The notes under the pieces: generated by a model
Told to the model about the DNA's origin: nothing
The model's database searches: none
The model's input: only the letters and a program-made list of their open reading frames with translations
In this document: one piece after another, positions 6,001 to 35,592 of the stretch
How positions within the stretch are numbered: position 1 is the stretch's first letter
Layout: each line of letters begins with the position of its first letter
Program-made: the position numbers and the translations under genes
Source of the DNA: Rhodococcus aetherivorans
GTDB taxonomy: Bacteria > Actinomycetota > Actinomycetes > Mycobacteriales > Mycobacteriaceae
Direction of reading: 5' to 3'
DNA length: 47,517 bases
NCBI RefSeq assembly: GCF_011058165.1
Contig: NZ_JAALEG010000045.1
Coordinates: forward strand, 1-47,517

Positions 6001-9000
6001 GTCGTCGACGTCGATGCCGGTGAGGTCCACGTCGAGGGGGTGCACGGTGGTGAACCATCCGACGGTGCGGGACAGGTCGGCTCCGGGGACCGCCGCCTCC
6101 TCGCGGCCGTGGCCCTCGACGCCGACGAGCGTCGCGGGGGCGGTGCGGCCGCGGTTGCGGCGCCACCGCTCGGCCGCCAGGCCGAGCGCGGCGAGCAACG
6201 CCTCGGCGGTGCCGCAGTGGAAGCGCTGGGGCACGGCGGTCAGCACGGCGTCGGTGACCTCGGCGGGCACGTGCACGCGCAGCCGGGCGGAGGTGGCGAC
6301 GGTGTCGCGCGCCGGATCGAACGGCCGCTCCCCCAGTGCCGGGTCGGGCGTCGCGAGAATCCGCTCCCACAACGGCAGTTCGTCGCTGCGGTCGGCCTCG
6401 GTCAGGCCGTGCGCCCACCGGCGCAGCGACGTGCCGACCGGGGCGAGGGCGGGCGCGGCACCGCCGGCGAGGTCGGTGTAGGCGGCGGCCAGGTCGGGCA
6501 GCAGGATGCGCCAGGACACCGCGTCCACGGCGAGGTGGTGGACGACGGCCACGAGCAGGTCGTCGCGGCCGTCGGGCGAGGCCAGCCACTCGAACTGCGC
6601 GACGATCCCGGCGGCCGGATCGAGTCGGTCCGCCGCGGCCTCCAGCGCGGCCGCGGCGGCGCCGCGTGGCTCGTCGACGGCGGCGCGGCGCAGCACCGCG
6701 TCGGCGGCGACCGCGCCGACGGGGAGCACCTCGAGCGTGCGGGCAGCGGTCAGCCGCATCCGCAGCGCGTCGTGCCGATCGAGCAGCGCCTGCACGGCCC
6801 CGGCCAGGTGCGCCGGGTCGGGATGCTCGGGCAGCCGGATCAGCACGGCCTGCCCGTACCGGTCGACGGGCCCGCCGCCGGCCAGCAGTTCGGCGACGAT
6901 CGGGGTGGTGTCGACCGGACCGGTGCCGCCGCCGGGGAGTTCGGCAAGGACTGCGCCGGCTCCGGTGTCCGCCACCGCGACGGCGGCCAGAGCGGCGACG
7001 GTGCGGCGCTCGAAGACGTCGCGCGCGGTGAACCGCAGTCCGGCGGCGCGGGCGCGGGAGACGAGGGTGATCGCGACGATGCTGTCGCCGCCGAGGGCGA
7101 AGAAACTGTCGTCGGCGCCGACTCGTTCCACGCCGAGCACCTGGGTGAACAGGGCGGCGATCACTTCCTCGCGGGCGCCCTCGGGGGCGCGGCCGGCGGT
7201 GGGGGTGCCGAAGTCCGGGGCGGGCAACGCGGCGCGGTCGATCTTCCCGACGGGGGTGAGCGGCAGTTCGGGCAGCACGGTGATCGCCGCGGGCACGAGG
7301 TAGGCGGGCAGGGTGTCGGCGAGTTCGCCGCGCAGGGCGTCGACGTCGACGGCGGCGCCGGCGTGCCCGACGACGTAGGCGGCGAGGACGGTCGCGCCGG
7401 CGGGCGTGGTGGCGCCGACGGTGACGGCCCGGGCAACGGTGTGGTGCCGGAGCAGCGCGGCGTCGACCTCGCCGAGTTCGACGCGGAACCCCCGGATCTT
7501 GACCTGGTGATCGGTGCGGCCGGCGAACTCGAGCGCGGCGGCTGCGCCGCCGGTGTGTCCTTCGGGCTCCCCTGGCAGCCCAAAGGACGCACCGCGCCAG
7601 CGCACCAGGTCACCGGTGCGGTACATGCGTTCTCCGGGCGCGTACGGGTCGGCCACGAAGCGGGCGGCGGTCAGGTCGGGGCGGCCGAGATAGCCGCGGG
7701 CGATCCCGGCGCCGGCCAGGTACAGCTCGCCGGTGACCCCTGCGGGCACGGGCTGCAGCCGGCGGTCCAGGACGAGGGCGCGCATGCCGCGGATCGGGGT
7801 GCCGACCCCGACCCGGTCGCCGCGGTGGTGCGGAGCCGCGAAGGTGGCGGTGACGGTGGCCTCGGTGGGGCCGTACGCGTTGAGGAACGCCCGGCCCACC
7901 GACCACCGATCGGCCAGGTCGGGCGGGCAGGCGTCGCCACCGACGACGACCGTGCCGATCTCGGGGTGGTCGTCGGGGTCGAGGGTGGCGAGCACGGCCG
8001 GGGTCGCGTCGAGGTGGGTGACTCGTCCGGCGCGGAGAACCTCGGCGAGCTCGGTGCCGCCATAGGCCTGCGGCGGCACCACCACCAGGGTGGCGCCGGC
8101 GGTGAAGGTCACCAGCAGCTCCTCGATCGAGGAGTCGAAGGCCGGCGAGTACAGGTGGGTGGCGCGCGAGCCGGCGGCGACGGCCAGACGCGCGCGGGCG
8201 TCGTCGGCGAGGTTCGCCAGGCCGGCATGGGTGACGACGACCCCCTTGGGGGTGCCGGTGGAACCGGAGGTGTAGACGACGTAGGCGGCGTGCTCGGGCC
8301 GCAGCGGGATTCCCCGCTCCGCGTCGGTGACCGGGCCGGCGTCCGCCGCCGTGACCGCGGCGACGGTCGCGGGGTCGTCCAGGGCGATCCAGTCGGTGTC
8401 GTCGGGCAGTCCGTCCCGGTGCGCGGCGACGGTCAGGCCGATGCGGGCGCCGCTGTCGCGCAGGACGTGCTCGAGCCGGGCCCGGGGGTGACCGGGGTCG
8501 ACGGGCACGAACGCGGCTCCCGTCTTGGCGACGGCCCACACGGCCTGCACCGATTCGACGGACCGCGACAGCGCCAGCGCCACCGTGGTCTCCGGGCCGG
8601 CGCCGCGGGCGAGCAGCAGCCGGGCGAGCCGGTCGGTGGCGGCGTCCAGGTCGGAGTAGGTCACGGTGCGCGCACCGTCGATCACCGCGACGGCGCCGGG
8701 GTCGAGGGCCGCCCCGGCGGTGAGCAGGTCGGCCAGGGTGCGGGGCGGCACCGGATCGGCGCCGCGGGCCGGGACGAGGGCGGCGCGCTCGTCGTCGCCG
8801 AGCAGGTCCAGGTCGGCGAGACGCCGGTCGGGTGCGGCGGTGGCGAAACGGTGCAGGAACGCGAGGAACCGCCGGTGGTGCGCGGCGAGCTCGTCCCGGT
8901 CGTACAGGTTGGGGTTGGCCTGGAAGTCGAGGTGCGTGCTGTGGCCGCCCGGATAGAGGTTGACGAACAGGTCCTCGATGAGCCCGGAGGTGAGCACGTG

Positions 9001-10131
9001 GACCCGCCCGGTGAGCGCGCCGAGCCGGACCCGGTGGTCGAACAGCATGAGGTTGACCGAGGGGCCGAACCCGGCGGCGTGATCGCCGGTGAGACCGAGG
9101 TCGCGGGCGATGTCCTCCTGCCGGTACCGCTGGCGGCGCAGTGCCCCGGTCAGCTCGAGTTCCGCCGCGGCGATCACGGCGGCGACGGTGGCGGCGTCGG
9201 TGCGCAACCGCAGCGGCACCACGTTGGCGAGCATGCCCCCGGAGCGGCGCAGCGTGGCGGTGGTGCGGGCCGAGACGGGCAGGCTGAGCATCACCTCGTC
9301 GTGGCCGGTCATCCGGGCGAGGTAGGTGCCGAACGCGGCGACCACCAGCGGTGCGAGGCTCGACCCGCGCCGGGCCGCGGCGTCGCGCAGGGCCTGCTCG
9401 GTGTCGGCGGGCAGCTCCGCGCCGACCAGCAGCGGGTGCGCGTCGGCGGGGGCGGCCCGGCCGGCCAGCGACACGGGATCGCTCAGCCCGGCCAGGTGCT
9501 CGGTCCAGTACGCACGGTCGGCCTCGAACCGCGGGGAGCGGCGGTAGGTCTCGTCCGCGGCGACGATGTCGGGCAGCGCGGCGGTGCGCGGCGTGTGCAC
9601 CGCGGTTCCGGTGACGGTGGCGGTGTAGAGCTCGGCGGTGCGCGCGACGAGGGTCATCGCGCCGACGCCGTCGAGGGCGATGTGGTGGATCCGGGCGTAC
9701 CAGAACCAGCGGTCCTCGGCGATGCGGAGCACGGCGGTGACGGCGAGCCGGTCGGTGCACATGTCGACCGGGGCGGTGTAGTCGCGCTCCATCCATTCGC
9801 GGGCCGCGGCCACGGGATCGGCCTCGCCCCGCAGATCGACCACCGTCAGCCGCTCGCCGGTGTGCACGACCGTCTGGAACGGGTGGCCGTCCTCCTCGAC
9901 GATGCGCAGGAAGCCGGTGCCGAACTCGCGTCCGACGGCACGGGCGGCACCTTCGAGGGCGTCGAGGTCGAGGTCCCCGGCGATGTCGACGTACTGGGCG
10001 ATGTTGACGGGCGTGGCGCCGGCCAGGTGCTGTGCGAACCAGATCCCGCGCTGGGCCGCCGAGAGCGGGAACGCGCCGGCGGGCTGCGGGGCAGCGAAAT
10101 GTTCTTGGGCGACCGGGCTTTCGTGCAACAC
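1..10131 (-). CDS. Non-ribosomal peptide synthetase, 3' end outside window
   Basis: A single open minus-strand frame of at least 3377 codons builds a peptide on carrier domains in the cytoplasm. The GTG start at 10131 follows AGGAG by 8 nt. Domain order: C1 from about residue 21 (HHIALDG at 149), A1 (YTSGSTG at 620, NAYGPTE at 751, Lys963), T1 (LGGDS, Ser1017), E ([11 protein letters not shown] at 1198), C2 from about 1538 (HHLVLDGW at 1673), A2 (YTSGSTG at 2128), T2 (LGGNS, Ser2513), C3 from about 2564 (HHIAADG at 2693), A3 (YTSGSTG at 3183), cut at residue 3377. All anchors share one frame, so no frameshift is needed. C1 resembles the EntF condensation domain ([10 protein letters not shown]; the region before FDHRVRLG), which accepts an acyl or aryl group from a separate carrier. 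T1 has the GGDS form usual before E domains. My reading of the A1 pocket is D-S-E-D-V-G-A-V-T-K, whose acidic residues hint at a basic amino acid; A2 (DAFVGCLIW-) and A3 (DAFVAALIW-) resemble each other. No MbtH or siderophore starter genes are in view. Confidence 0.95.
7558..7587. repeat. Palindromic insertion inside NRPS A1 domain
   Basis: The 30 bp are an 11-bp inverted repeat (TCCTTCGGGCT / AGCCCAAAGGA, one mismatch) around an 8-nt centre. It lies between core motifs A7 (YRTGDL) and A8 ([11 protein letters not shown]) of the first adenylation domain, where this stretch is about 15 residues longer than the usual RWRADGTLEF-type loop and than the matching loop of A2. The reading frame is preserved. 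It looks like a small palindromic element inserted into a tolerant surface loop; a naturally long loop is the alternative. Confidence 0.5.
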
Positions 10132-24036: not shown

Positions 24037-24471
24037 TCAGCGCGGTTCCAGGATCAGGAGCGGGATCTCCCGGTCCGTCTTCTTCTGGTACTCCGCGTAA
24101 TCGGGGAAGGCCTCGACCGCGCGCCGCCACCACAGATCCTTCTCCTCGCCGTGGACCTCGCGGGCGGTCATGTCCCGGACCGTCGGCCCGTCACGCAGTT
24201 CGACGTGCGGGTCCGCCAGGACGTTGTAGTACCAGACCGGATGCTTCGGGGCACCGCCGAGGGAGGCGACCACCGCGTAGACGCCGTCGTGCTCGACCCG
24301 CATCAGCGGGGTCTTGCGCAGCTTGCCGGTCCTCGCTCCGCGGCTGGTCAGCACGACGACGGGCCGGCCGTTCAGGGTAGTACCCTCGGTACCGCCGGAA
24401 CTCTCGTACAGCGCCACCTGGTCGGCGGCCCACTGGGACGGACTCGGTTCGTATTCTCCGGTGAGAGGCAT
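24037..24471 (-). CDS. Deazaflavin (F420)-dependent nitroreductase family protein, Rv1558 type
   Basis: The 144-residue protein belongs to the DDN / F420H2-dependent reductase family: [20 protein letters not shown] is the F420-binding signature, followed by [20 protein letters not shown] and [19 protein letters not shown] at the C-terminus. Such proteins reduce quinones or activated nitro or alkene substrates with F420H2. I chose ATG 24471 ([10 protein letters not shown]), which matches the usual N-terminus; the RBS is weak. It lies 85 bp upstream of ilvA on the same strand and may be co-transcribed with it. The backbone synteny breaks just upstream of this gene. Confidence 0.88.
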
Positions 24472-24526
24472 GGCCCCGATTCGACCACGCCCGGCCGCCC
24501 CTCGCTGCCAAAACACGGCTCATCTG

Positions 24527-25224: not shown

Positions 25225-25325
25225 GTGACAACTCTTGCGTGGATGACCTCGGTCACTCGACGGGGAAATCCCTCGAACTCGCCGTCCACCCGCTCCGATC
25301 GGGGACAACCCGGCGCGTCCGGTCC

Positions 25326-25895
25326 AGGGTTTCCCCCGTCGCCGGTCACCGTGCCCGTGCCGAATGCTGTTCTACGTCAACCATTCGTGCCGGCGGCTCA
25401 TCACCCGCCCGCCGCACACTGCGAGGGAGAACACCTTGACCAAGAACGTGTGTCGTGCAGCGGTGGCCGCCCCCAAGGCGATCCATCCCGTCAGGCTCGG
25501 CCCGCTTGCTCCCGCATCCGCGTCGATGTTCAGGGTGCCGGTCGTGGGCGGGTCGTGGGCGCGGCACTGTCACGTCGAGCGCCCACCTATCGGGAATCGG
25601 CAGGTCAGGTAGTCGACTACTCGTTACCGCCGCAGGACGAAGTGCGAGGCCTTCTGCACGGATGCTCTCCCCAGACCCGATATGGGACTTGCGAGTGCGT
25701 CGCAGGATGTGCCGATGAAGTGAGGGCGTCATGACCGAAGACGCAGCGATCGCCGAAGCCACGGGACGGTTCACCTCCGCCCGGCGCCGAAGCGGCTCGC
25801 CCGGCAGCGTGTCCGCCGTCGTCCGGTCCGGCCGCTGACTGCACGGTTCGTCCTGTCCCCACCCGTGGTATTTCCTCTCGGGGTAGAGATTTGCA
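25326..25895. repeat. Long direct repeat, left copy
   Basis: This segment is repeated in the same orientation at 34661-35208 with high but imperfect identity by eye. One tract of 47 nt (25476-25522) is identical to 34809-34855. Small open frames in it (for example one starting near 25436 and one at 25731) show frameshifting differences between copies and no recognisable domain, so I do not call genes. Both copies are about 9.3 kb apart and bracket the six-gene biosynthetic set. It may be a decayed mobile-element arm or a duplicated control region. Confidence 0.8.
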
Positions 25896-26135
25896 ACCTG
25901 GGGTGCCTACTGGGGGCAGCGGCGCCGGCACATTGTGGTAGGCGATCAGCTGCGCACCAGGCGGAGCGCAACGATGCAGAGATTCCGGGTAGGCCCGGCG
26001 CTCCCGAATCTGACCCCAGCCCCTACGTGTGGGGTCGCCCAAGGGCACCCGTGACGGTGACCCGATCGGGCCAGACCTCACCACATCGGGAAGCGACAAG
26101 AAGAGCAGGGACCGAAGTCCCGGGAGGAGCACGGC
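25896..26135 (+). promoter_or_regulatory. Leader and promoter region of the biosynthetic operon
   Basis: The 240 bp between the left direct repeat and the first operon gene hold no gene. They include ACCTGGGGT (25896-25904), close to the palindrome upstream of the chorismate-mutase gene at 12.8 kb, and an inverted repeat GACCCC / GGGGTC (26012-26017 and 26031-26036). The ribosome site GGAGGAGC precedes the ATG at 26136. I could not place -10 and -35 boxes with confidence. Confidence 0.4.
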
Positions 26136-27809
26136 ATGGTAACGAGCGGTCGAAGTCATGGACGCGAACAGCGGCGGGTCGTCGACTACCTGGTCGATGC
26201 GGTGGCCGCGCTGGGCGTGCGGAACATCTTCGGGGTGGACGGCGCCAACATCGAGGACCTCTACGACGCGGTCTTCGATGCCGACGTGGATGTGACCGGG
26301 GTGGTTGCCAAGCACGAGTTCTCCGCGGCCACCATGGCCGACGGGTACGCACGCTCGTCGAGTGGGCTCGGTGTTGTCGCCGCCACCTCGGGTGGTGGCG
26401 CGATGAACCTGGTCGCCGGACTGGCCGAGTCCTACACCTCGCGGGTGCCGGTGCTGGCCCTGGTCGGTCAGCCACCGACCACGTTGGAGGGCGGCGGGGC
26501 GTTCCAGGATTCCAGCGGCCGGGCGGGTTCGATCGACGCTGCGCGGTTGTTCTTCGAGATCTCCCGCTACTGCACGCGGGTCGAGCGGCCCGAGGACATC
26601 GCCGAGCACCTGGAGCGGGCGGTGTCCGCGGCGCTGTGCGGTGGGCCTGCGGTATTGCTGTTGCCCAAGGATGTTCAGCAGGCCACCGTTACGGGGCCCC
26701 GGTTCACCCCGCCGACCCGCCGGGTGGTTCGCGATCACATCGGGCTGGCCCGGGTCGCCGAGATGATCGCCGCGGCCCGGCGGACCGGCAAGATCGTGCT
26801 CATCGTCGGCGATCAGGTGGCGCGCAACGATGCCCGCGCGCAGGTGCGGGCGTTGGCCGTCGCGTTGGACGCGGCGGTCGGGGTGGCACCGGATGCGAAG
26901 GATTGCTACGCCGCCGACGAGCATGGATTCTGCGGTGTGGCAGGCATAATGGGCCACGCCGAACTCGTCGACGCCGTGCAGCAGGCGGCGTTGTGCCTGC
27001 TGGTGGGCACCCGGATGCCGATGACCGCACGAGCCGGGCTCGACGGTGCGCTGGCCGGAGTGCCGGTGGCCAGCATCGGCGCCGAACCACCCTATGCGCC
27101 CACGGTGCACGCGGTGAGCATGGACCTCGGGTCGACACTGGACGAGCTCACGGCGCTGTTCGACGTCGACGGCGTACCGGAACCGGCAGGCCCGCAGGCC
27201 CTGACGACGCTGGAGGTACCCGACTCCTCGGGTCCGGGGCTGCGCTACCGCGAGGCCGTGGAGGCGATCACAGCGATGCTGCCGGCGGGAGCGGACGTGT
27301 TCGCCGACGCCGGGAACACGGGCGCATCGGTGGTGCATCATCTTTCGGTGCCCCGCGGCGGGCGGTTCGTGGTCGCCCTCGGGATGGGCGGCATGGGCTA
27401 CAGCTTCGGCGCGGGGATCGGCTCGGCGTTCGCGCGGAACAGAAGGACGTTCGTGATCGCCGGGGACGGCGCGTTCTTCATGCACGGCCTGGAGATGCAC
27501 ACCGCGATCGAGCACGACCTGCCGGTGACATTCATCGTGTTCAACAACAACGCGCACGCGATGTGCGTGACCCGCGAGCAACTGTTCTACCGCGATCGAT
27601 ACAGCTTCAACCGATTCCGGCCGGCCCTGCTCGGCGAGGGGATCGCGGCGATGTTCCCGACGCTGCCGGCATTCGCCGCGCGAAGTGTCGGCGAGCTGAC
27701 CGACGCGCTGGCACGCAGCGCGCACACCGAAGGCCCGTCGTTCGTAGCGGTGGACTGCGATCCCGACGAGATACCACCGTTCCTGCCGTTCCTGACCAGC
27801 CCCCGATAA
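26136..27809 (+). CDS. ThDP-dependent enzyme, acetolactate-synthase/decarboxylase superfamily
   Basis: The 557-residue protein has the three-domain layout of ThDP enzymes. The N-terminal Pyr domain carries the activating Glu61 in AKHEFSAATMADGYAR, the middle domain is a Rossmann-like region (about 195-340), and the C-terminal PP domain has the ThDP/Mg2+ motif GDG(444-446)...NNN(471-473). Such enzymes decarboxylate 2-oxo acids and may join the resulting acyl anion to an aldehyde or 2-oxo acid (acyloin formation). It is not the housekeeping IlvB: no FAD-site pattern or IlvN partner is visible. ATG has GGAGGAGC upstream. It leads a plus-strand operon; the next gene begins 20 bp after its stop. 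Donor substrate is unknown; aromatic or branched 2-oxo acids are plausible given the neighbours. Confidence 0.88.
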   Translation: MVTSGRSHGREQRRVVDYLVDAVAALGVRNIFGVDGANIEDLYDAVFDADVDVTGVVAKHEFSAATMADGYARSSSGLGVVAATSGGGAMNLVAGLAESYTSRVPVLALVGQPPTTLEGGGAFQDSSGRAGSIDAARLFFEISRYCTRVERPEDIAEHLERAVSAALCGGPAVLLLPKDVQQATVTGPRFTPPTRRVVRDHIGLARVAEMIAAARRTGKIVLIVGDQVARNDARAQVRALAVALDAAVGVAPDAKDCYAADEHGFCGVAGIMGHAELVDAVQQAALCLLVGTRMPMTARAGLDGALAGVPVASIGAEPPYAPTVHAVSMDLGSTLDELTALFDVDGVPEPAGPQALTTLEVPDSSGPGLRYREAVEAITAMLPAGADVFADAGNTGASVVHHLSVPRGGRFVVALGMGGMGYSFGAGIGSAFARNRRTFVIAGDGAFFMHGLEMHTAIEHDLPVTFIVFNNNAHAMCVTREQLFYRDRYSFNRFRPALLGEGIAAMFPTLPAFAARSVGELTDALARSAHTEGPSFVAVDCDPDEIPPFLPFLTSPR

Positions 27810-27829
27810 AGAACCGAAGGAGAGAAATC

Positions 27830-28486
27830 GTGACCATCAGTCTTCCCGCTCTGAGCGACATCGCCGAGGATCTGATCCCGGGTGTGCTGCGGATCGAAAA
27901 TTCCGACAAGGAGGCCACCACACCGATCATCGTGGACATGCTGCGGTCGGTGTACCCGCACGACCAGGTGTTCGGTCAGTTCTGCCCGGTCAACGCCTAC
28001 ATCGCGGCGCCGCCGCGTGAGGTGTACGAGTACCTTGCGGACACCCGGTGTCTGGAGGAGTGGACCTACAGCCTGCGCGGGTTCACCGAGACCGACGAGC
28101 CCGGGCTGTGGCTCTCCTACGACCGACTCGGCGACCAGACGAAATGCTATGTGCGCACCGTCGCGAACCCCGACGCGATGACGGTGGACTACCACTGCGC
28201 GTGGGACCAGGGCCGACACCTGTGGATGATCTATCTGATGCGGGTGGTCGATGCGCAGGTGGTGCTCAACAAGCCCGGATCGGTGGTGCTGTGGACCAAC
28301 TGCCGCCACCCGTTCTACGACGAGAACCCTTACCCGGAGACGGCACCGGCGAACCGCCCGGTGTGGGTCGGCGACTTCTGGGACATGTTCTCCGCCGGAC
28401 ATCAGTTGGAGATGGACAACCTCAAGGCCATCTGCGAGTACCGCGCCACCCACGGTCTGCCGATCAAGCCGGAATGGATGAAATGA
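27830..28486 (+). CDS. SRPBCC (START-like) family protein
   Basis: The 218-residue protein starts at GTG with AAGGAG upstream. Its middle (YIAAPPREVYEYLADTRCLE, then EWTYSLRGF) is the opening of a START/SRPBCC hydrophobic-cavity fold of the kind found in polyketide cyclases, aromatases and ligand-binding proteins. It is longer than a minimal SRPBCC domain, with an N-terminal extension of about 50 residues and a C-terminal tail (SAGHQLEMDNLKAICEYRAT). The 4-nt ATGA overlap with the ketosynthase-like gene indicates translational coupling and suggests the two products act together, perhaps with this one shaping or cyclising the KASIII product. No specific reaction can be assigned. Confidence 0.75.
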   Translation: MTISLPALSDIAEDLIPGVLRIENSDKEATTPIIVDMLRSVYPHDQVFGQFCPVNAYIAAPPREVYEYLADTRCLEEWTYSLRGFTETDEPGLWLSYDRLGDQTKCYVRTVANPDAMTVDYHCAWDQGRHLWMIYLMRVVDAQVVLNKPGSVVLWTNCRHPFYDENPYPETAPANRPVWVGDFWDMFSAGHQLEMDNLKAICEYRATHGLPIKPEWMK

Positions 28487-29544
28487 GCATGACAGTGCAC
28501 GCACCGATGACAGCGGCCCGGCCCACGGTCAGCCTGGTCGACGTCGCCAGCTATCTACCGGAGAATCGGGTTCCCACCGAATATTTCACTCAGTTCTCCC
28601 GCTCGGACCGGATGGCGAAGAACGTCATGTTCCGCTCGCCGAAGTATCGGCACCACGTGGCCCGTGACGAGACTGCGGTGGACATGGTGGAGCGGGCGGT
28701 GGCCCCGCTGATCGACAGGCACGGCGCGGACACGATTTCGAACGTGGATGTGCTGCTCACCCACACCCAGCTGCCCGACAACCCGGTGCTCGGCTGCGGC
28801 CCGGAGGTGGCCCGCCGGTTGGGATTGCGCCCGGACTGGGTGATCGACGTGCACAACGGCGGCTGCGCGTCGTTCGTGCACATGATGGCGCTGGCCCGGA
28901 CCATCCTGCAGAGCTCCGATGCGACCACGGCGCTGGTCGCCACGACCCAGAACAGTGCGGGACAGGTCTTCACCCAGAGCGAGATCCGAGGGTTGGCGCA
29001 TGCCTCGGTCCCCGGCGACGGCTGCGGGGTCGGCCTGTTGACCAAATCCGACGACGCCCCGATCCTGGGCATCGAATGCCGCACCTATCCGGAGTTCGGC
29101 GGGGACATGACCTTCGAGGGAGTTCCGGTCTCCGATCGCAAGTACTGGGAGCCGGGCCTCGGGCAGGTCTGCGTGGGGTTCACCGAGTCCAAGATCACCA
29201 AGGTGTTCGCCCGCGGCAACCGGCTGGTGCCGGAGGTGGCGCTGGCGGTCTGCGATCGGATCGGCGTGCAATCCGCCGAGGTCGACACCTTCGTCACCAA
29301 CCAACCCAACCGGCTGTTCCTGCGGAACTGGCGCGAGGCCATGCAGCTGACCCCGGAGCAGCACCCGGACACCTTCGACGAGTGCGGAAACCTGTTCGGC
29401 GCCGGCATTCCGGTGACGCTGGATACCGCCAACCGGGACGGGCGCATCGGCAACGGGTCACTGGTGGTGCTGGCCGGATTCGCCCACGCCGGCGACTTCG
29501 CCGGTGCGGCCGCCGTCCGATGGGGAGCGGGGCCGACGCCATGA
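28483..29544 (+). CDS. KASIII-like (FabH-fold) acyltransferase with altered active site
   Basis: The 353-residue thiolase-fold protein starts inside the stop of the preceding gene. Active-site Cys128 sits in VHNGGCASF, matching the FabH Cys. Asn303 is kept (ECGNLFGAG). The catalytic His of the FabH HQAN motif is replaced: the segment reads TNQPNRLF with Asn273. Substitutions of this kind occur in KASIII relatives that have become C-O or C-N acyltransferases or use other substrates, so this is unlikely to be a fatty-acid initiation enzyme. In xenocyloin biosynthesis two KASIII-like proteins acylate an acyloin; that is the closest functional analogy I know for the ThDP/KASIII pair. Its stop overlaps the aminotransferase start by 4 nt. 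Confidence 0.87.
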   Translation: MSMTVHAPMTAARPTVSLVDVASYLPENRVPTEYFTQFSRSDRMAKNVMFRSPKYRHHVARDETAVDMVERAVAPLIDRHGADTISNVDVLLTHTQLPDNPVLGCGPEVARRLGLRPDWVIDVHNGGCASFVHMMALARTILQSSDATTALVATTQNSAGQVFTQSEIRGLAHASVPGDGCGVGLLTKSDDAPILGIECRTYPEFGGDMTFEGVPVSDRKYWEPGLGQVCVGFTESKITKVFARGNRLVPEVALAVCDRIGVQSAEVDTFVTNQPNRLFLRNWREAMQLTPEQHPDTFDECGNLFGAGIPVTLDTANRDGRIGNGSLVVLAGFAHAGDFAGAAAVRWGAGPTP

Positions 29545-30572
29545 CCGGCGAGATCGCGGAGGCGACGACACCGTCGGCGGGGAGCGGCGTGACCAGGCCG
29601 GTGCCCCACTTCGAGCTCGGGCTGAGCGAGAACCCGTTCCCGCCGTTGCCGTCGGTGCTGGCGGCGCTGTACGAACAGATGGCCCGGGCGAATCGATATC
29701 CGGAGTTTCTGCCGCAGCGGCTTCCCCGGATCATCGCCGACCGGGTCGGTGTGGACCCGGAGCAGGTGGCGGTCGGTTCGGGCGCGACGGGGGTGGCGAT
29801 GCAGATCATGCAGGCCGTGCTGCGAAGCGGCGAAACCATGGTGTTCGCGAACCCGACGTTCGACGGTTATCCGATCATGGCCGACATGTTGGGCGTGGAA
29901 GCGGTGGCGGTGCCGCTCGATCATGGTGGTCGCCAGGATCTGTGTGCGATGGGCGAGGCGGTCGACGACCGGACCGGGCTGGTGGTGGTGTGCCGGCCGC
30001 ACAACCCCACCGGCACCCTGGTCTCCGCGGCCGACCTGGAGGTGTTCCTGTCCTCGATTCCGCCGCAGGTGGTGGTGATCCTCGACGAGGCCTACGTCGA
30101 GTTCATCGACGCCGCCGACGCGGTCGATGTGCTCGGCCTCATTCGCCGCTACCCCAATATGCTGGTGCTGCGGACGTTTTCGAAGGCATTCGGGCTGGCC
30201 GGGCTGCGCATCGGGTACGTATTCGGAGGGCGGGAGCTGGTGGCGCGGGTGCGGCGCCGGCAGCTGCCGTTCGGGATGAGTTGCGCGGCGGTGGCGGCGG
30301 TGACCGCCTCCTATGCGGCGGAGGACGAACTGCGGGACCGGGTCGCGCGGATCACCGCCGAACGCGAACTCTTGTGGGTGGCGTTGCGGCAGAACGGGGT
30401 GCATGTTCCCCGCAGCCATGCCAACTTCCTCTACCTGAACGGGTCGCGCATCGCACCGGCGCTGCAGTGTGCCGGCATCGTGGCAAAACCCTACGCCGAC
30501 GGCAGCGCCCGCATCGCGGTGGGCGATCCCGCCGCCGGCCGCGCGGTGCTGCGGGCACTGCAGGCGATCTGA
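29541..30572 (+). CDS. Class I/II aminotransferase, HisC / aromatic type
   Basis: The 343-residue PLP enzyme has the fold-type I marks: LSENPFPPLPSV at the N-terminus, Asn155 (HNPTGT), Asp182 and Tyr185 (DEAYVEF) and PLP Lys215 in TFSKAFGLAGLRIGY. It resembles histidinol-phosphate and aromatic aminotransferases of actinobacteria. As chromosomal histidine genes are not here, it probably serves the operon, either supplying an aryl 2-oxo acid or aminating the ketone product. ATGA overlap with the ketosynthase gene shows tight coupling. The P450 gene begins 10 bp after its stop. Confidence 0.88.
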   Translation: MTGEIAEATTPSAGSGVTRPVPHFELGLSENPFPPLPSVLAALYEQMARANRYPEFLPQRLPRIIADRVGVDPEQVAVGSGATGVAMQIMQAVLRSGETMVFANPTFDGYPIMADMLGVEAVAVPLDHGGRQDLCAMGEAVDDRTGLVVVCRPHNPTGTLVSAADLEVFLSSIPPQVVVILDEAYVEFIDAADAVDVLGLIRRYPNMLVLRTFSKAFGLAGLRIGYVFGGRELVARVRRRQLPFGMSCAAVAAVTASYAAEDELRDRVARITAERELLWVALRQNGVHVPRSHANFLYLNGSRIAPALQCAGIVAKPYADGSARIAVGDPAAGRAVLRALQAI

Positions 30573-30582
30573 GGGCCGCGGT

Positions 30583-31983
30583 ATGTCGACGATGTTGCCG
30601 CGTGCCTCGCAGTTACGTGCGGCCGGGCGCGGTGCTGTTCGCACGCTCACCGCCGGGGCCGATCCCGATCGCTATTTCCGGTGGCGGCGCGACCGCGACG
30701 GTGACCCGTTCGAGGTCCGGTTTCCCGGCTTCACGCCGATCCTGTTCACCGGACATCCCGAGGGTGCCCGAGATATCTTCCGTGCGCCCGTCGATCTGGT
30801 CGAGCCCCCGACCCCGAATCCGATCGCGCCGCTGGTCGGGGACGCGTCGCTGATCTTGATATCCGGAGAGCGGCACCGCCGGGAACGGAAATTGTTGACA
30901 CCACCGTTCCACGGGGAGCGGATGCGGGCATACGGCGAGATCATCCGCGTTTCGACCCTCGATGAGATCGCCGACTGGACTCCGGGACGCACCGTCGACT
31001 CGCGGTCTGCCCTTCGGGCCATCACCCTGCGCGTGATCCTGGAGGCGGTGTTCGGGCTCACCGGCACCGAACGCCCGGCCGAATACATCCGGGTGGTCGC
31101 CGATTTCCTCGCCGCCTACACCGGCCCGCTGATGTTGGTTCCACCGCTGCGCCGCGGTGTGTTCGGACACGCGCCCTGGGATCGGTTCGTCCGCGCACGC
31201 GACGAATTCGATGCGTTGCTGACCGAGGACATCGAGCGCCGGCGCGCGGAGCCCGAGGACGGCCGGGTGGACATCCTGAGCATGCTGCTCGCCGCGACCT
31301 ACGAAGACGGGTCGCGGATCGACGACGGCGAACTGCGCGAGGAACTCCGCACATTGCTGGTGGCCGGGCACGAGACCACCGCGACCTCGGTGTGCTGGGC
31401 GTTGTTCCATCTGCACCGCCACCCTGAGGTCCGCGAGCGGGTGATAGCCGAGGTGCGGGACCTGGGCGCGACGGCGGCGCCCGAGGACCTCGCTCGGTTG
31501 CCGTACCTGGACGCGGTGTGCCACGAGACGCTGCGGTTACACCCGCCGGTGCCGATCGTGCTGCGCCGGCTGACCGGGCCGCTGCACGTGCGCGGCGTCC
31601 CGGTAGCCGCGGGCGCAACGGTCGGTATCGCCCTGCCGCTCCTGCATTCGCATCCGGATGTCTGGGAACGACCCGACCGGTTCGATCCGGAGCGTTTCGT
31701 CGGGCGGCGCTACAGTCCGTTCGAATTCGCGCCGTACGGCGGCGCGCATCGACGGTGCATCGGGTTCGCCCTGGCGGAGTACGAGATGCCGATCGTGCTG
31801 GCGACCATCCTGTCGCGGGTCCGGCTGGCTCTGCCGGAGCGGGCCCTACGCCGGCCGCCGCCGGTGTCGGTCCCACACAACATCGCGACCGGGCCGCGTC
31901 GGCCGATCATGTTCGAAGTGTTGGGCCCGCGGCACCAGGACGACCGTTCGGACGGGTCGTCGGTCCCGCACGGTCCGGGGTGA
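30583..31983 (+). CDS. Cytochrome P450
   Basis: The 466-residue haem monooxygenase shows the I-helix oxygen-binding motif AGHETTAT (261-268), the K-helix ETLRLHPP (ExxR), and the haem loop FAPYGGAHRRCIGFA with axial Cys392. Length and motifs place it with class-I bacterial P450s of the CYP110/CYP102-like branch; no fused reductase or ferredoxin gene is nearby, so it must use cellular redox partners. It probably hydroxylates or otherwise oxidises the product of the preceding genes. ATG at 30583 lies 10 bp after the aminotransferase stop. The C-terminus is a Arg/Asp/Gly-rich tail. Confidence 0.92.
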   Translation: MSTMLPRASQLRAAGRGAVRTLTAGADPDRYFRWRRDRDGDPFEVRFPGFTPILFTGHPEGARDIFRAPVDLVEPPTPNPIAPLVGDASLILISGERHRRERKLLTPPFHGERMRAYGEIIRVSTLDEIADWTPGRTVDSRSALRAITLRVILEAVFGLTGTERPAEYIRVVADFLAAYTGPLMLVPPLRRGVFGHAPWDRFVRARDEFDALLTEDIERRRAEPEDGRVDILSMLLAATYEDGSRIDDGELREELRTLLVAGHETTATSVCWALFHLHRHPEVRERVIAEVRDLGATAAPEDLARLPYLDAVCHETLRLHPPVPIVLRRLTGPLHVRGVPVAAGATVGIALPLLHSHPDVWERPDRFDPERFVGRRYSPFEFAPYGGAHRRCIGFALAEYEMPIVLATILSRVRLALPERALRRPPPVSVPHNIATGPRRPIMFEVLGPRHQDDRSDGSSVPHGPG

Positions 31984-32236
31984 TGTCGAGCGCGGCGGCG
32001 CCCGGTGTTCCGGGCGGGGATGAATCCGATTGCCGACGATCGAGAGCAGGATCGAGATGAGCACCACCACCGACGGCTACCCGGCCGGGCCCGGGTCGCA
32101 ACGCCCTCGCCATGGTGCAGACTGCGGCGCTCACGGCGGCGCCGGTAAACGCGACGACGAGCCGCGACACGCGGCATCGGAGGAACAACAGCTCACCACC
32201 GCGCATGGCAAACGATCGCGAAGGAGCGACGACGTC
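31984..32236 (+). other. Gap between P450 and exporter genes
   Basis: These 253 bp hold no gene I can support. An in-frame upstream ATG at 32057 would extend the exporter by 60 residues of low-complexity, hydrophilic sequence, which is not expected before the first membrane helix. The gap may hold a second promoter or the remains of a deleted gene. Confidence 0.4.
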
Positions 32237-34432
32237 ATGGTGACACGGCTCGCCACCCTCATCGTCGACCGTCCCCGCCGGGTTCTCGCCGGCGCCCTGG
32301 CCTTCCTGGTGCTCGCCGGTGTGTTCGGCACGGGTGTCTCCGCCGAGCTGAAGGTCGGCGGTTTCGACGACCCCGACTCGGAATCGTCTCTGGCCGAGGC
32401 CTTCCTCGACGAGCGCTTCGGCGGCTCCACACCCAACCTGGTGTTGCAGGTCACCGCCCGCGCCGGCGATGTGAACAGCCCCGAGGTGATGGCCGCGGCG
32501 CAGCGGCTCGAGCGGCGGATCGCGGCGGAGCCGGAGGTGACCGAGGTCGGCTCCTACTGGACCACGCGGCTGCCGGATCTGCGCAGCACCGACGGCCGGT
32601 CCGGGCTGGTGCTGCTGCACGTCGGCGGCACCGCGGAACAGGCCGCCCGGCACACCACGACGATCCTCGCGGAGCTGCCCGAGGACCCGGCGGTGCGGGT
32701 GGCGGCCGGGGGCAAGCTGGGGCTGACCGACGCCCTCGAGACCCACGTGGCGCAGGACCTGAAGCTGGCCGAATCGATCGCGCTGCCCGCGACGCTGCTG
32801 CTGCTGATCATCGTGTTCGGCAGCGTGGTGGCCGCGCTGCTGCCGCTGAGCCTGGGCGTGGCCTCGATTCTGGCGACGATGCTGGTGCTGTTCGTGCTGG
32901 CCCAGGTCACCGACGTGTCCGTCTACGCGCTGACCGTGGCCACGGCATTCGGGCTCGGCCTCGCCATCGACTTCGGGCTGCTGCTGGTGTCCCGGTTCCG
33001 CGAGGAGCGGGCCGCCGGGCATCCACCACGGGAAGCGGTGATCGAGTCGGTCGCGACGGCCGGCCGCACCATCCTGTTCAGCGCGGCCACCGTGACGGTG
33101 GCGATGGGCGGGATGCTCGTGTTCCCCATCTACTTCCTGCGGTCGGTCGGGTTCGCGGCGATGGCGGTGGTGGTGACGGCGGCCGTGAGCGCAGTGGTGG
33201 TGCTGCCGGCGATTCTGGCACTGCTCGGTGGGCGAATCGACTCGTTGGCGGTGCGGCGCCGACGCGACCGGCTGGCGGCGGATTCGCCGTTCTGGCGTCG
33301 CACCGCGGCGGCGGTGACGCGCCGACCGGTGCGCGCCGCGCTGCCGGTGCTGATGCTGTTGCTACTGATGGGCCTTCCGGTCCTGCACGCCCGGTTCGCG
33401 ACCCCGGACGAGCGAGCGCTGCCGGTCGATTCGGCCGCGCGTCAGGTCACCACCGCGATCCGGGACGACTATGCCGCCGACAGCTCGGACGCAGCGATCT
33501 TGGTGGCGCGCAACGACGCGGCGGCGCTCGAGCGGGTGGCCCGCGAGGTGTCCGCGCTCGACGAGGTGGCCCGGGTGGACGGCGCCTTCGGCCGCTACCA
33601 ACACGGGATGCTGGTGGCCGGTCCGGGACCGCAGAGCGCGCGCTTCACCGCCGACGATGCCGGGTACGTGCTGGTCGAACCGACGGTGGACGCGCAATCG
33701 GAACCGGCCCAGGACCTGGTGCACGAGATCCGGGCGCTGCCGGCGGTGGCCGAGAACCGCGTTGCCGTCGGCGGCCCGACGGCGACGCTGATCGACAGCA
33801 ATTCCGCGATCGCCGGCCGTCTGCCGTCGGCACTCGCACTGCTGGCCGTGTCGACCTTCGTGCTGTTGTTCCTATTCACCGGAAGCATGATCGTGCCGAT
33901 CAAGGCGCTGCTGCTCAACGTGTTCGTGCTCATCGCGGTGATCGGCGCGATGGTGTGGCTGTTCCAGGACGGGCACCTGGCCGCGATCACCGGCGTGACG
34001 CCCGCACCGCTGAACATCGGCATGGTGGTGCTGCTGTGCTGCATCGCGTTCAGCCTGTCGGTGGACTACGAGATCTTCCTGCTCAGCCGGATCAAGGAGG
34101 CGCGCGACGGCGGGGCGGGCACCACCGAGGCGACCATCGAGGGCCTGGGTCGCGTCGGGCGGATCGTGAGCAGCGCCGCCGCCCTGCTCACCGTGACCTT
34201 GCTGTCCTTCTCGACCGGGCTGTCGTTCATGCAGATGTTCGGGATCGGCACCGCGCTCGCCGTGCTGATGGACGCCACACTGGTGCGCGGTGTGCTGGTG
34301 CCGGCGTTCATGCGGGTGGCCGGCGAGTTCAACTGGTGGGCACCGGGACCGCTGCGCCGACTGCACGCGCGGATCGGGGTGCGCGAGTCCCCGAGGTCGT
34401 CCGCTCCCGCAGGGTCGCGGCCAGGCAGCTGA
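32237..34432 (+). CDS. MMPL/RND-family exporter
   Basis: The 731-residue inner-membrane protein has two halves of the RND type, each with one helix, a periplasmic domain and a bundle of five helices. Helix 1 is RVLAGALAFLVLAGVFGTGV. Proton-relay-type motifs are GLAIDFGLLLVSRF in the first half and SLSVDYEIFLLSRI in the second. Short MMPL proteins of actinobacteria export lipids, siderophores or antibiotics; this one probably exports the operon product. I chose ATG 32237 (MVTRLATLIV) with AAGGAG 10 nt upstream. The last 16 or so codons lie on sequence that is antisense to an ISKra4-type transposase remnant, so the natural C-terminal tail seems to have been replaced by an insertion. Confidence 0.9.
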   Translation: MVTRLATLIVDRPRRVLAGALAFLVLAGVFGTGVSAELKVGGFDDPDSESSLAEAFLDERFGGSTPNLVLQVTARAGDVNSPEVMAAAQRLERRIAAEPEVTEVGSYWTTRLPDLRSTDGRSGLVLLHVGGTAEQAARHTTTILAELPEDPAVRVAAGGKLGLTDALETHVAQDLKLAESIALPATLLLLIIVFGSVVAALLPLSLGVASILATMLVLFVLAQVTDVSVYALTVATAFGLGLAIDFGLLLVSRFREERAAGHPPREAVIESVATAGRTILFSAATVTVAMGGMLVFPIYFLRSVGFAAMAVVVTAAVSAVVVLPAILALLGGRIDSLAVRRRRDRLAADSPFWRRTAAAVTRRPVRAALPVLMLLLLMGLPVLHARFATPDERALPVDSAARQVTTAIRDDYAADSSDAAILVARNDAAALERVAREVSALDEVARVDGAFGRYQHGMLVAGPGPQSARFTADDAGYVLVEPTVDAQSEPAQDLVHEIRALPAVAENRVAVGGPTATLIDSNSAIAGRLPSALALLAVSTFVLLFLFTGSMIVPIKALLLNVFVLIAVIGAMVWLFQDGHLAAITGVTPAPLNIGMVVLLCCIAFSLSVDYEIFLLSRIKEARDGGAGTTEATIEGLGRVGRIVSSAAALLTVTLLSFSTGLSFMQMFGIGTALAVLMDATLVRGVLVPAFMRVAGEFNWWAPGPLRRLHARIGVRESPRSSAPAGSRPGS

Positions 34433-34660
34433 ACGTTCGGGTCGGCTGCGGCGTGCACGGGCTGCGCCACCAGCGGGGGCTGTCCAGCGGCAGCGTGCCG
34501 AACAGCGTCCCCATCACGATGGGCCAGGCTGTCCGTGTGCCGCCGCGGGATTTCGCAGTCCGGGCACGCGAGCCGGGAGGACAGCGCGGTGGCGACCTGG
34601 TGTTCGACCACGGTGTCCTGCACCGCGGCGAACAGGTGCTCGGCCCAAACATCGCGGTCG
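34385..34660 (-). pseudogene. ISKra4-type transposase remnant
   Basis: Read on the minus strand, one frame gives DRDVWAEHLFAAVQDTVVEH and ALSSRLACPDCEIPRRHTD, and after a frameshift the next gives GTLFGTLPLDSPRWWRSPCT then PQPTRTFSCLAATLRERTT. This zinc-like CxxC followed by FGxLxLxSPR...RTFSxLAAxLxERTTPE is the ISKra4 N-terminal pattern. The catalytic part is gone. The remnant overlaps the 3' end of the exporter gene and borders the right direct repeat. Confidence 0.65.
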
Positions 34661-35208
34661 AGGGTTTTCCCCGTCGCCGGTCACCGTGCCCATGCCGAAT
34701 GATGTTCTCCACGTCAACCACTCGTGCCGGGTGCAACACCCGCCGAAACACACCACGAGAAGAACACCTTGGACAAGAAAGTGTTTCGCGCAGCGATGGC
34801 CGTTCCCGAGGCGATCCATCCCGTCAGGCTCGGCCCGCTTGCTCCCGCATCCGCGCCGTTGTTCAGCGTGCCGGTCGTGGGCGCCGTCCCGCCCGACGTG
34901 GCGAGGTTGCCGCGGAAACAGGAGTCGACTACTCGTTACCGCCACGCGGTGAAGTGCGACGGCTTCGTCAAGGATGCTCTCCCCATACCCGATATGAGAC
35001 CGGCAAGTGCGTCGCAGAATGCGCCGATGAAGCGAGGCCTTCATGATCGAGGACGCAGCGATCACCGAAGCCACGAGACGGTTCACCCCCGGCTCGTCGC
35101 CGAACAGGCTCGCCCGGCAACGTGCCCGCCATCGCCCGGTCCGGCCGCCGACTGCACGATCCGTCCCGTCCCCACCCGTGACCCTTTCCCTCGGTGTGGA
35201 GATTTGCA
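34661..35208. repeat. Long direct repeat, right copy
   Basis: This is the partner of 25326-25895 in the same orientation, sharing the identical 47-nt tract at 34809-34855 and many shorter ones, with small indels. On its left it joins the ISKra4-type remnant; the left copy does not. Recombination between the two copies would delete or circularise 9335 bp carrying all six operon genes. No gene is called within it. Confidence 0.8.
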
Positions 35209-35307
35209 CCCGTCGGTACTTCGTGGAATCCATGGTGTCGGTCTCGGTTCCACGGTGAACCGCCGACAACCACCGACCTGATACGCGATAGTTGCCAGGA
35301 GCTGGAG
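35209..35307 (+). promoter_or_regulatory. Promoter region of the chorismate-mutase-like/secreted-protein operon
   Basis: The region contains the inverted repeat GGTTC-N6-GAACC (35246-35261), 47 bp before the start codon of the next gene. Unlike the matching place after the left repeat copy, it lacks the TGGGGT sequence. A promoter is expected here, but no clear boxes are seen. Confidence 0.35.
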
Positions 35308-35592
35308 ATGAACCCACTCGCGTTCCCCCAATCGGACGAGCGATCGATCACAATCGAGTTCGACGAGCTGCACAACGAGATCGACCACATCGACGCGGAA
35401 ATTCTCGCGGCGGTCGTCCGGCGCACGGAACTCTCTCGGAGAGTTACCGCGGTCGAGCGGGCCTGCGGCGTCACCGGCACCCCGTACAAGCGCGACCTCG
35501 CGGTGATCCACCGCTTCGGAGTGCTCGGTAAGGAAGGCCACTCGCTCGGCAGCCTGCTGATCCGGCTGGCGCATCCGCGCAACCACCGCTGA
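35308..35592 (+). CDS. Chorismate-mutase-like (AroQ-delta) protein with altered active site
   Basis: The 94-residue protein aligns by eye with Rv0948c-type chorismate mutases (FDELHNEIDHIDAEILAAVV, then RRTELSRR; LGSLLIRLAH) and with the protein from 12417-12737. Compared with the mycobacterial enzyme, the Lys and Arg of the GKAR segment correspond to Ala and Glu (TAVERACG) and the Glu of SREM is Asp (KRDLA). The C-terminal RLGR that contacts DAHP synthase is RLAH. Activity is therefore doubtful; a ligand-binding or decoy role, or a specialised mutase feeding aromatic precursors to the operon, are options. ATG at 35308 has AGGAG upstream. It is followed 37 bp later by the secreted-protein gene, probably in one operon. 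Confidence 0.75.
   Translation: MNPLAFPQSDERSITIEFDELHNEIDHIDAEILAAVVRRTELSRRVTAVERACGVTGTPYKRDLAVIHRFGVLGKEGHSLGSLLIRLAHPRNHR

What the first reader, a model, noticed from the sequence alone, without database searches (positions are those of the whole stretch)
26136..34432. Six-gene biosynthetic operon pairing a ThDP enzyme with a KASIII-like enzyme
Seen: ThDP enzyme, SRPBCC protein, KASIII-like protein, HisC-like aminotransferase, P450 and MMPL exporter in one direction, with ATGA overlaps between the SRPBCC, KASIII and aminotransferase genes. Known: in xenocyloin biosynthesis a ThDP acyloin synthase works with KASIII-like acyltransferases. Inference: this operon may make an acylated acyloin or an amino-ketone from an aromatic or branched 2-oxo acid, then oxidise and export it. 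I know of no described actinobacterial cluster with this exact set.
Basis: partly seen in the sequence, partly recalled or inferred. Interest (0 to 1): 0.85.

Follow-up and report, generated by a model that had tools for sequence, protein, structure and literature searches.

The report
Carbazole-type operon, variant lineage
These genes look like a little-studied version of the bacterial machinery that builds carbazole antioxidants from tryptophan; relatives are common in mycolic-acid actinomycetes, and the product may be an oily carbazole like those known from Tsukamurella.

Summary
The six genes are real and co-directional; both ATGA overlaps are exact. The core is not a xenocyloin-like acyloin/amino-ketone set: the SRPBCC protein is a homologue of the carbazole synthase CqsB2 (E 2.8e-47, 43% identity), and ThDP + SRPBCC + KASIII-like + HisC-like aminotransferase correspond to CqsB3/B2/B1/B7, which turn tryptophan, pyruvate and an acyl thioester into a carbazole. 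The window belongs to a sister lineage ("clade B") of the characterised enzymes (KASIII 24-29% identical). In clade B the KASIII catalytic His is Asn in 142 of 142 copies at 140 loci (one a duplicate); 8 of 8 KASIII at five canonical loci have His. CqsB2 Glu105 is Asp in 141 of 141. SRPBCC homologues occur in 151 of 401 genomes sampled from the family and 15 of 16 of a genus inferred to be Tsukamurella, source of the antioxidant lipocarbazoles, one per genome. In three other genomes the triad sits with an ACP-like gene, an AMP-binding ligase, MMPL, methyltransferases and the nearest relative of the window P450. Best reading: a 1-alkyl-2-methyl-carbazole (lipocarbazole-like) pathway. The chemistry is inferred, not shown. 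New variant of a known kind.

The parts
26136..27809 (+). ThDP-dependent acyloin/alpha-hydroxy-beta-keto-acid synthase, CqsB3/NzsH counterpart
   Evidence: Pfam TPP_enzyme N/M/C; fails ALS cut-offs; 35-38% identical to the ThDP enzymes of five canonical Streptomyces carbazole loci and sharing with them Arg480 and the AGN, GMGGMG, GDG and NN motifs
27830..28486 (+). SRPBCC carbazole synthase homologue (CqsB2/NzsI type)
   Evidence: PDB 6ipv CqsB2 E 2.8e-47, 43% over 183 aa; Tyr135, Tyr163, His191, Glu194 = CqsB2 Tyr144, Tyr172, His206, Glu209; Asp98 in place of Glu105
28483..29544 (+). KASIII-like condensing enzyme (CqsB1/NzsJ counterpart) with Cys128-Asn273-Asn303 in place of Cys-His-Asn
   Evidence: Pfam ACP_syn_III; Asn273 aligns with the His of the five PDB KASIII/PqsC sequences shown; invariant in the clade B copies read
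29541..30572 (+). HisC-like aromatic aminotransferase (CqsB7 counterpart), expected to make indole-3-pyruvate
   Evidence: Aminotran_1_2; below the HisC model cut-offs; a homologue lies by the SRPBCC gene in 120 of 140 related loci
30583..31983 (+). cytochrome P450, putative tailoring oxidase
   Evidence: Pfam p450; in four of seven other genomes searched the genome-wide best match is the P450 beside the same triad, 45-50% identity against 38% for the next; the other three had no match at 1e-60
32237..34432 (+). MMPL-family exporter, putative lipid/product exporter
   Evidence: Pfam MMPL; MMPL genes near the triad in L141, L187, L199, L203, L205; linkage weaker than for the P450
25320..25913 (.). 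upstream copy of a flanking imperfect direct repeat
   Evidence: matches 34655-35211 at 81%; only these two copies found in the genome
34655..35211 (.). downstream copy of the flanking direct repeat
35308..35592 (+). small chorismate-mutase-like gene just outside the operon, not a conserved partner
   Evidence: TIGR01808 53.8 bits against cut-off 52.15; below the Pfam cut-off; no match in the 80 named loci at tblastn 1e-8 and 30% of the query, a strict limit for 94 aa

Best explanation
The operon encodes a variant of the bacterial carbazole assembly line. Proposed course: (1) the HisC-like aminotransferase converts L-tryptophan to indole-3-pyruvate; [quoted passage not shown] (3) the KASIII-like enzyme, loaded with a fatty acyl group on Cys128, condenses with that acid with loss of CO2; (4) the SRPBCC carbazole synthase closes the chain onto indole C2 and aromatises the new ring, giving a 1-alkyl-2-methyl-3-oxygenated carbazole; (5) the P450 oxidises it and MMPL exports it. 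Because the window belongs to the lineage found in the genus of the lipocarbazoles, and because relatives of its P450 and MMPL lie beside the triad with an acyl-activating enzyme and an ACP-like gene elsewhere, the product is most likely a long-chain (lipocarbazole- or carazostatin-like) carbazole, plausibly a membrane antioxidant. Shown here: gene content, homology, residue conservation, distribution and linkage. Inferred: every chemical step, substrate, chain length and biological role.
For: CqsB2 is the only meaningful PDB sequence match of the SRPBCC protein (E 2.8e-47; the next is 0.37), with four of five proposed catalytic residues identical and Glu105 as Asp (roles from PMC7466098). The ThDP/SRPBCC/KASIII/aminotransferase set corresponds to CqsB3/B2/B1/B7 (PMC7466098) and chlCz2/5/3/1, where the aminotransferase is also annotated as histidinol-phosphate transaminase (PMC10100901). 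Triad together in 139 of 140 loci of this lineage, aminotransferase in 120 of 140 (one locus is a duplicate). Lipocarbazoles come from Tsukamurella pseudospumae (title of ref. [quoted passage not shown] Three genomes have triad-ACP-like-AMP-binding ligase-MMPL-OMT-MT-P450, with the P450 the best genome-wide match to the window P450.
Against: No product has been linked to any locus of this lineage in what was read. KASIII is only 24-29% and ThDP 35-38% identical to the enzymes of the canonical loci, and the invariant His-to-Asn and Glu-to-Asp changes could mean different chemistry. T. pseudospumae itself was not identified; that the unnamed genus is Tsukamurella is inferred. The window has no second KASIII and no ACP found with the two queries used, and neither window-type P450 nor MMPL was found in any of the 80 named Nocardia/Antrihabitans loci. 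The three Tsukamurella-type loci lack an adjacent aminotransferase. In the P450/MMPL comparison the triad-adjacent P450 of G123 and the MMPL of G045 and G123 carry a stop inside the match, so those copies may be broken or misread. The chorismate-mutase-like gene next door could hint at phenylpyruvate.
Confidence: 0.68

Rival explanations
1. The lineage uses another aromatic 2-oxo acid (phenylpyruvate or 4-hydroxyphenylpyruvate) in place of indole-3-pyruvate and builds a naphthalene-type product by the same logic.
For: HisC-like aminotransferases can accept several aromatic amino acids (recalled); a chorismate-mutase-like gene lies just downstream; 40% CM matches on the opposite strand downstream of the aminotransferase in L211 and L213; the related ScyA uses 4-hydroxyphenylpyruvate as donor (PMC9822442).
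Against: Four of the five CqsB2 residues that act in ring closure are kept; the three Tsukamurella-type loci hold a TrpB-like gene; CM not found in the 80 named loci; closing onto an unactivated benzene ring is chemically harder (inference).
Confidence: 0.15
2. One reading: an acyloin is O-acylated by the KASIII-like enzyme (xenocyloin-like) or transaminated to an amino-ketone, with the SRPBCC protein in another role.
For: Loss of the catalytic His would suit an enzyme that transfers acyl groups without driving decarboxylation (inference); canonical CqsB1 product turns spontaneously into indole-containing esters (PMC7466098).
Against: A CqsB2 homologue with Tyr/Tyr/His/Glu kept is present in each of the 140 loci, which were chosen for it, and its known role is ring closure; the matching Streptomyces pathways use the aminotransferase upstream.
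Confidence: 0.12
3. The operon is an inactive or silent copy, the working locus being the second triad on contig C29.
For: Two triads in the genome; the window copy sits between imperfect direct repeats; only 2 of 18 genomes of the genus, this one included, have any copy.
Against: All six window genes are open and keep lineage-invariant residues; the C29 copy has no adjacent aminotransferase, P450 or MMPL.
Confidence: 0.05

Closest known systems
Carquinostatin (cqs) and neocarazostatin (nzs) clusters of Streptomyces
   Same: ThDP enzyme, SRPBCC carbazole synthase, KASIII-like enzyme, aminotransferase; synthase residues Tyr144/Tyr172/His206/Glu209 kept
   Different: Order ThDP-SRPBCC-KASIII-AT against KASIII-SRPBCC-ThDP-..-AT at the five CqsB2-like loci read; KASIII Cys-Asn-Asn not Cys-His-Asn, Glu105 to Asp; no second KASIII and no ACP found by the window triad; the known clusters also have a prenyltransferase and an IPP isomerase
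Chlocarbazomycin (chlCz) cluster, Streptomyces tubbatahanensis
   Same: Histidinol-phosphate-transaminase-like AT, ThDP enzyme, KASIII, SRPBCC carbazole synthase (passages)
   Different: Has an ACP and FAD/SDR tailoring genes; acetyl donor and pathway proposed by its authors; its sequences were not compared here
Lipocarbazoles (Tsukamurella pseudospumae) and carazostatin
   Same: [quoted passage not shown] the genus carries this lineage
   Different: No gene cluster for them was seen in the passages read; the link is by genus and chemistry only
Xenocyloin (Xcl) acyloin system
   Different: No carbazole synthase (recalled); not compared here by sequence
ScyA/ScyC (scytonemin)
   Same: ThDP aromatic acyloin synthase plus a cyclase; weak ScyC match of the SRPBCC protein (26.3 bits against cut-off 400)
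   Different: Far below the family cut-off; no KASIII step (recalled)

Membership tests
Bacterial carbazole (cqs/nzs-type) assembly | SRPBCC carbazole synthase homologous to CqsB2 with Tyr144, Tyr172, Glu105, His206, Glu209 | tested here: inconclusive
   43% identity over 183 aa, E 2.8e-47; four residues identical, Glu105 is Asp in 141 of 141 clade B copies and Glu in 5 of 5 clade A
Bacterial carbazole (cqs/nzs-type) assembly | ThDP enzyme of NzsH/CqsB3 type next to the synthase | tested here: met
   35-38% to the ThDP enzymes of the five canonical loci, shared motifs; NzsH and CqsB3 themselves were not fetched by name
Bacterial carbazole (cqs/nzs-type) assembly | KASIII-like enzyme with Cys-His-Asn (CqsB1/NzsJ) | tested here: not met
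   Cys128-Asn273-Asn303; Asn in 142 of 142 clade B copies, His in 8 of 8 KASIII at canonical loci. Hence filed as a variant lineage, not as a member
Bacterial carbazole (cqs/nzs-type) assembly | Aminotransferase for Trp to indole-3-pyruvate | tested here: inconclusive
   Homologous HisC-like AT present (33-47% to the ATs of the canonical loci); substrate not testable
Bacterial carbazole (cqs/nzs-type) assembly | Makes a carbazole | not testable with these tools
   needs biochemistry or metabolomics
Housekeeping acetolactate synthase | Meets TIGR00118 / ALS cut-off | tested here: not met
   210.7 bits against 538.35
Histidinol-phosphate transaminase HisC | Meets TIGR01141 / PRK03321 cut-off | tested here: not met
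   246.1 against 276.55; 325.2 against 374
Xenocyloin system | Sequence kinship with XclA/XclB/XclC | not tested
   no Xcl sequence was fetched; resemblance is recalled

The most novel reading that the evidence does not exclude
Mycolic-acid actinomycetes and some streptomycetes carry a previously unrecognised lineage of carbazole machinery in which the condensing enzyme has replaced its catalytic His by Asn (Cys-Asn-Asn). It makes lipid-tailed mono-oxygenated carbazoles as a near-core membrane antioxidant in genera such as Tsukamurella and Nocardia, and is the unidentified route to lipocarbazole/carazostatin-type compounds.
Probability: 0.4. Interest if true: 0.8.

Novelty: new variant of a known kind. 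Interest (0 to 1): 0.62.

Why it matters
A 2020 review states that the machinery for mono-oxygenated carbazoles remains to be identified (PMC7466098). This lineage is a concrete candidate, present in the genus that makes lipocarbazoles, and it carries two lineage-wide active-site changes (KASIII His to Asn, synthase Glu105 to Asp) that can be tested directly. If right, a carbazole lipid would be a common, overlooked metabolite of Nocardia, Tsukamurella and relatives, and Cys-Asn-Asn would be a working form of the KASIII active site of which I know no described example (recalled, not searched).

Tried and rejected
Xenocyloin-like acylated acyloin or amino-ketone: demoted once the SRPBCC protein matched CqsB2. 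Housekeeping ALS and HisC: rejected on family cut-offs. Chorismate mutase as pathway partner: no match in the 80 named loci, opposite-strand matches in L211 and L213 only among the 55 loci. BbmA/CsmA as guide to the ThDP function: best PDB matches, but the paper search gave nothing on them. The ten paper searches listed no paper that, from title or abstract, describes this lineage in Nocardia, Tsukamurella or mycobacteria; the library holds open-licence papers only, and Figure 8 of PMC7466098 (other homologues) could not be seen.

Limits of the counts. The 80 named loci are the best 80 of 495 relatives, all Nocardia or Antrihabitans, so the other 415 were not read. KASIII copies were counted at 45% identity to the window or more outside the clade A loci (none fell below, although one search shows a 24% KASIII elsewhere in L188 that was not counted). 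L217's KASIII reads as two pieces. Some copies carry a stop in the aligned stretch: SRPBCC of L135 and L212, KASIII of L081, L210 and L213. ThDP matches of L149, L184 and L188 come in two pieces. The KASIII tree was a quick search on 52 rows with long branches between clades A and B; it supports the clades, not the deep join. Searches used partly wrong frames and were superseded. One search fetched 100 bases that were not used.
Full report
What is there. Six co-directional genes lie at 26136-34432: ThDP enzyme, SRPBCC protein, KASIII-like enzyme, HisC-like aminotransferase, P450 and MMPL transporter. The SRPBCC/KASIII and KASIII/aminotransferase genes overlap by ATGA. Imperfect direct repeats (25320-25913 and 34655-35211, 81%; the only two copies found in the genome) flank the operon.

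What it resembles. The SRPBCC protein matches one solved family: CqsB2, the carbazole synthase of carquinostatin biosynthesis (6ipv, E 2.8e-47; next hit E 0.37), 43% over 183 aligned residues. Of the five residues that the review by Kobayashi and Kuzuyama assigns to the mechanism (PMC7466098; parts 1-3 of 5 and passages read), Tyr144, Tyr172, His206 and Glu209 are kept as Tyr135, Tyr163, His191 and Glu194, and Glu105 is Asp98. In that pathway the aminotransferase CqsB7 makes indole-3-pyruvate, the ThDP enzyme CqsB3 joins it to pyruvate, the KASIII-like CqsB1 adds an acyl group with decarboxylation, and CqsB2 closes the ring. The chlocarbazomycin cluster has the same enzyme types, its aminotransferase also annotated as histidinol-phosphate transaminase (PMC10100901, passages). 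The ThDP donor step is supported by PMC9822442 (part 1 of 4 read).

A distinct lineage. In Streptomyces, 36 of 392 genomes have a CqsB2 homologue; the best match is 70-98% identical to CqsB2 in five genomes and 41-49% in the others, one genome (G1137) having both kinds. I fetched 20 of the places listed. The five CqsB2-like loci (clade A) have the order KASIII-SRPBCC-ThDP and further downstream an aminotransferase, in three of them with a second KASIII between; the other 15 (clade B) have ThDP-SRPBCC-KASIII as in the window. Window KASIII is 24-29% identical to the five clade A rows and 50-80% to the 14 clade B rows compared. In clade B the KASIII His is Asn: 117 of 117 loci against His in 5 of 5 clade A; with 23 more loci, 142 of 142 KASIII copies at 140 loci (L217 read as two pieces; L215 repeats L074) against His in 8 of 8 KASIII copies at the clade A loci. 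The position was checked against the five PDB KASIII/PqsC alignments shown, all with His. The SRPBCC Glu105-to-Asp change holds in 141 of 141 clade B copies and none of 5 clade A. A quick tree of 52 KASIII rows separates clade B (44 rows; SH-aLRT 97) from clade A (5 rows), with three rows of the second KASIII as outgroup and long branches between.

Distribution. Own genus: 2 of 18 genomes, this one included. Own family: 151 of 401 sampled genomes, 16 of 31 genera. Phylum sample: 14 of 396, 13 of them in the own family. Named genomes: 495 relatives, of which the best 80, all Nocardia or Antrihabitans, were kept; in those the triad is found in 80 of 80 and the aminotransferase in 78 of 80 (the two others end at contig edges), and window-type P450 or MMPL in 0 of 80 at the limits used. 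By protein clustering of the 80 loci, an ABC-type ATPase recurs on the opposite strand upstream in 65, a permease in 40, a small EXLDI-like protein in 57, and leuS nearby in 63 (these names are my reading of the sequences, not scanned), which suggests a stable chromosomal place in Nocardia. Over the 140 loci read the triad is together in 139 and an aminotransferase homologue lies alongside in 120.

Link to lipocarbazoles. A plasmid search found six records with the SRPBCC gene, one from Tsukamurella tyrosinosolvens, where the triad is followed by a TrpB-like gene. [quoted passage not shown] The simplest reading is that clade B makes them; T. pseudospumae itself was not identified among the genomes.

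P450 and MMPL. Three genomes of one genus of the family (L141, L199, L205) have ThDP-SRPBCC-KASIII-ACP-like-AMP-binding ligase-MMPL-O-methyltransferase-methyltransferase-P450 (domains checked by Pfam in L141 only; the ACP-like gene rests on a 31% match). Of the eight genomes searched with the window P450 (own included), four of the seven others have as best match the triad-adjacent P450 (45-50% identity, next best 38%; the G123 copy with a stop inside), and three have nothing at 1e-60. For MMPL the triad-adjacent gene is the best match in G182 and G164, second in G1137 and G045, third in G123, and not adjacent in G381 or G014; the adjacent copies of G045 and G123 have a stop inside the match: suggestive only. 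An acyl-activating enzyme, an ACP-like gene and a lipid-type exporter beside the triad favour a fatty acyl donor.

The window copy and its sister. The genome has a second triad on contig C29 (72% identical in ThDP and SRPBCC), beside glycosyltransferase-like genes and without aminotransferase, P450 or MMPL alongside. In the KASIII tree the C29 copy groups with the other genome of the genus that has a copy (L133) and one from another genus (L146), the window copy with Nocardia, one Antrihabitans and others, so the window operon may be an acquisition.

Judgement. Carbazole-type assembly is well supported by homology; the long-chain, lipocarbazole-like product is a reasoned inference; the effect of the Cys-Asn-Asn site is open. 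Filed as a new variant of a known kind, not as a member of the canonical cqs/nzs family, because the Cys-His-Asn feature was tested and not met.

Noticed in passing
contig C29 of the same genome (L007:706-4369): Second ThDP-SRPBCC-KASIII triad, about 70-72% identical, followed by genes read by eye as glycosyltransferases and a LuxR-type regulator on the other strand; no adjacent aminotransferase, P450 or MMPL.
   Followed up: partly
25320-25913 and 34655-35211: Imperfect direct repeats (81%) flanking the operon; only two copies found in the genome.
   Followed up: partly
24037-24516 (-): F420H2-dependent quinone reductase gene (PF04075) near an operon whose product could be a quinone or catechol.
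   Followed up: no
L009-L088 (Nocardia, Antrihabitans): In many loci the carbazole-type operon is divergent from a DrrA/DrrB-like ABC exporter and a small EXLDI-like protein (names recalled, not scanned), near leuS.
   Followed up: partly
L188, L189, L190 (Streptomyces): Triad divergent from an ACP (PF00550 in L189), a cyclopropane-synthase-like methyltransferase and an FAD oxidoreductase (both read by eye) and an NAD_binding_4 reductase: a different tailoring set.
   Followed up: no
L216 (Tsukamurella tyrosinosolvens NZ_LR134449.1): TrpB-like gene downstream of the triad, and a styrene/indole monooxygenase-like gene about 8 kb away; the TrpB-like gene is in the same place in L142 and L210.
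   Followed up: partly
1-10131 (-): Large NRPS-like gene (condensation and AMP-binding domains in the part scanned, 7610-10131) running off the window edge.
   Followed up: no
L217 (Rhodococcus oxybenzonivorans plasmid pRB29): The KASIII match comes in two pieces and no gene is listed there, so it may be broken; the gene table of that collection is incomplete.
   Followed up: no
L218 (Nocardia sp. NBC_01327 plasmid): A rearranged version: SRPBCC then ThDP on one strand, KASIII and aminotransferase on the other some 5 kb away; KASIII still Cys-Asn-Asn.
   Followed up: no
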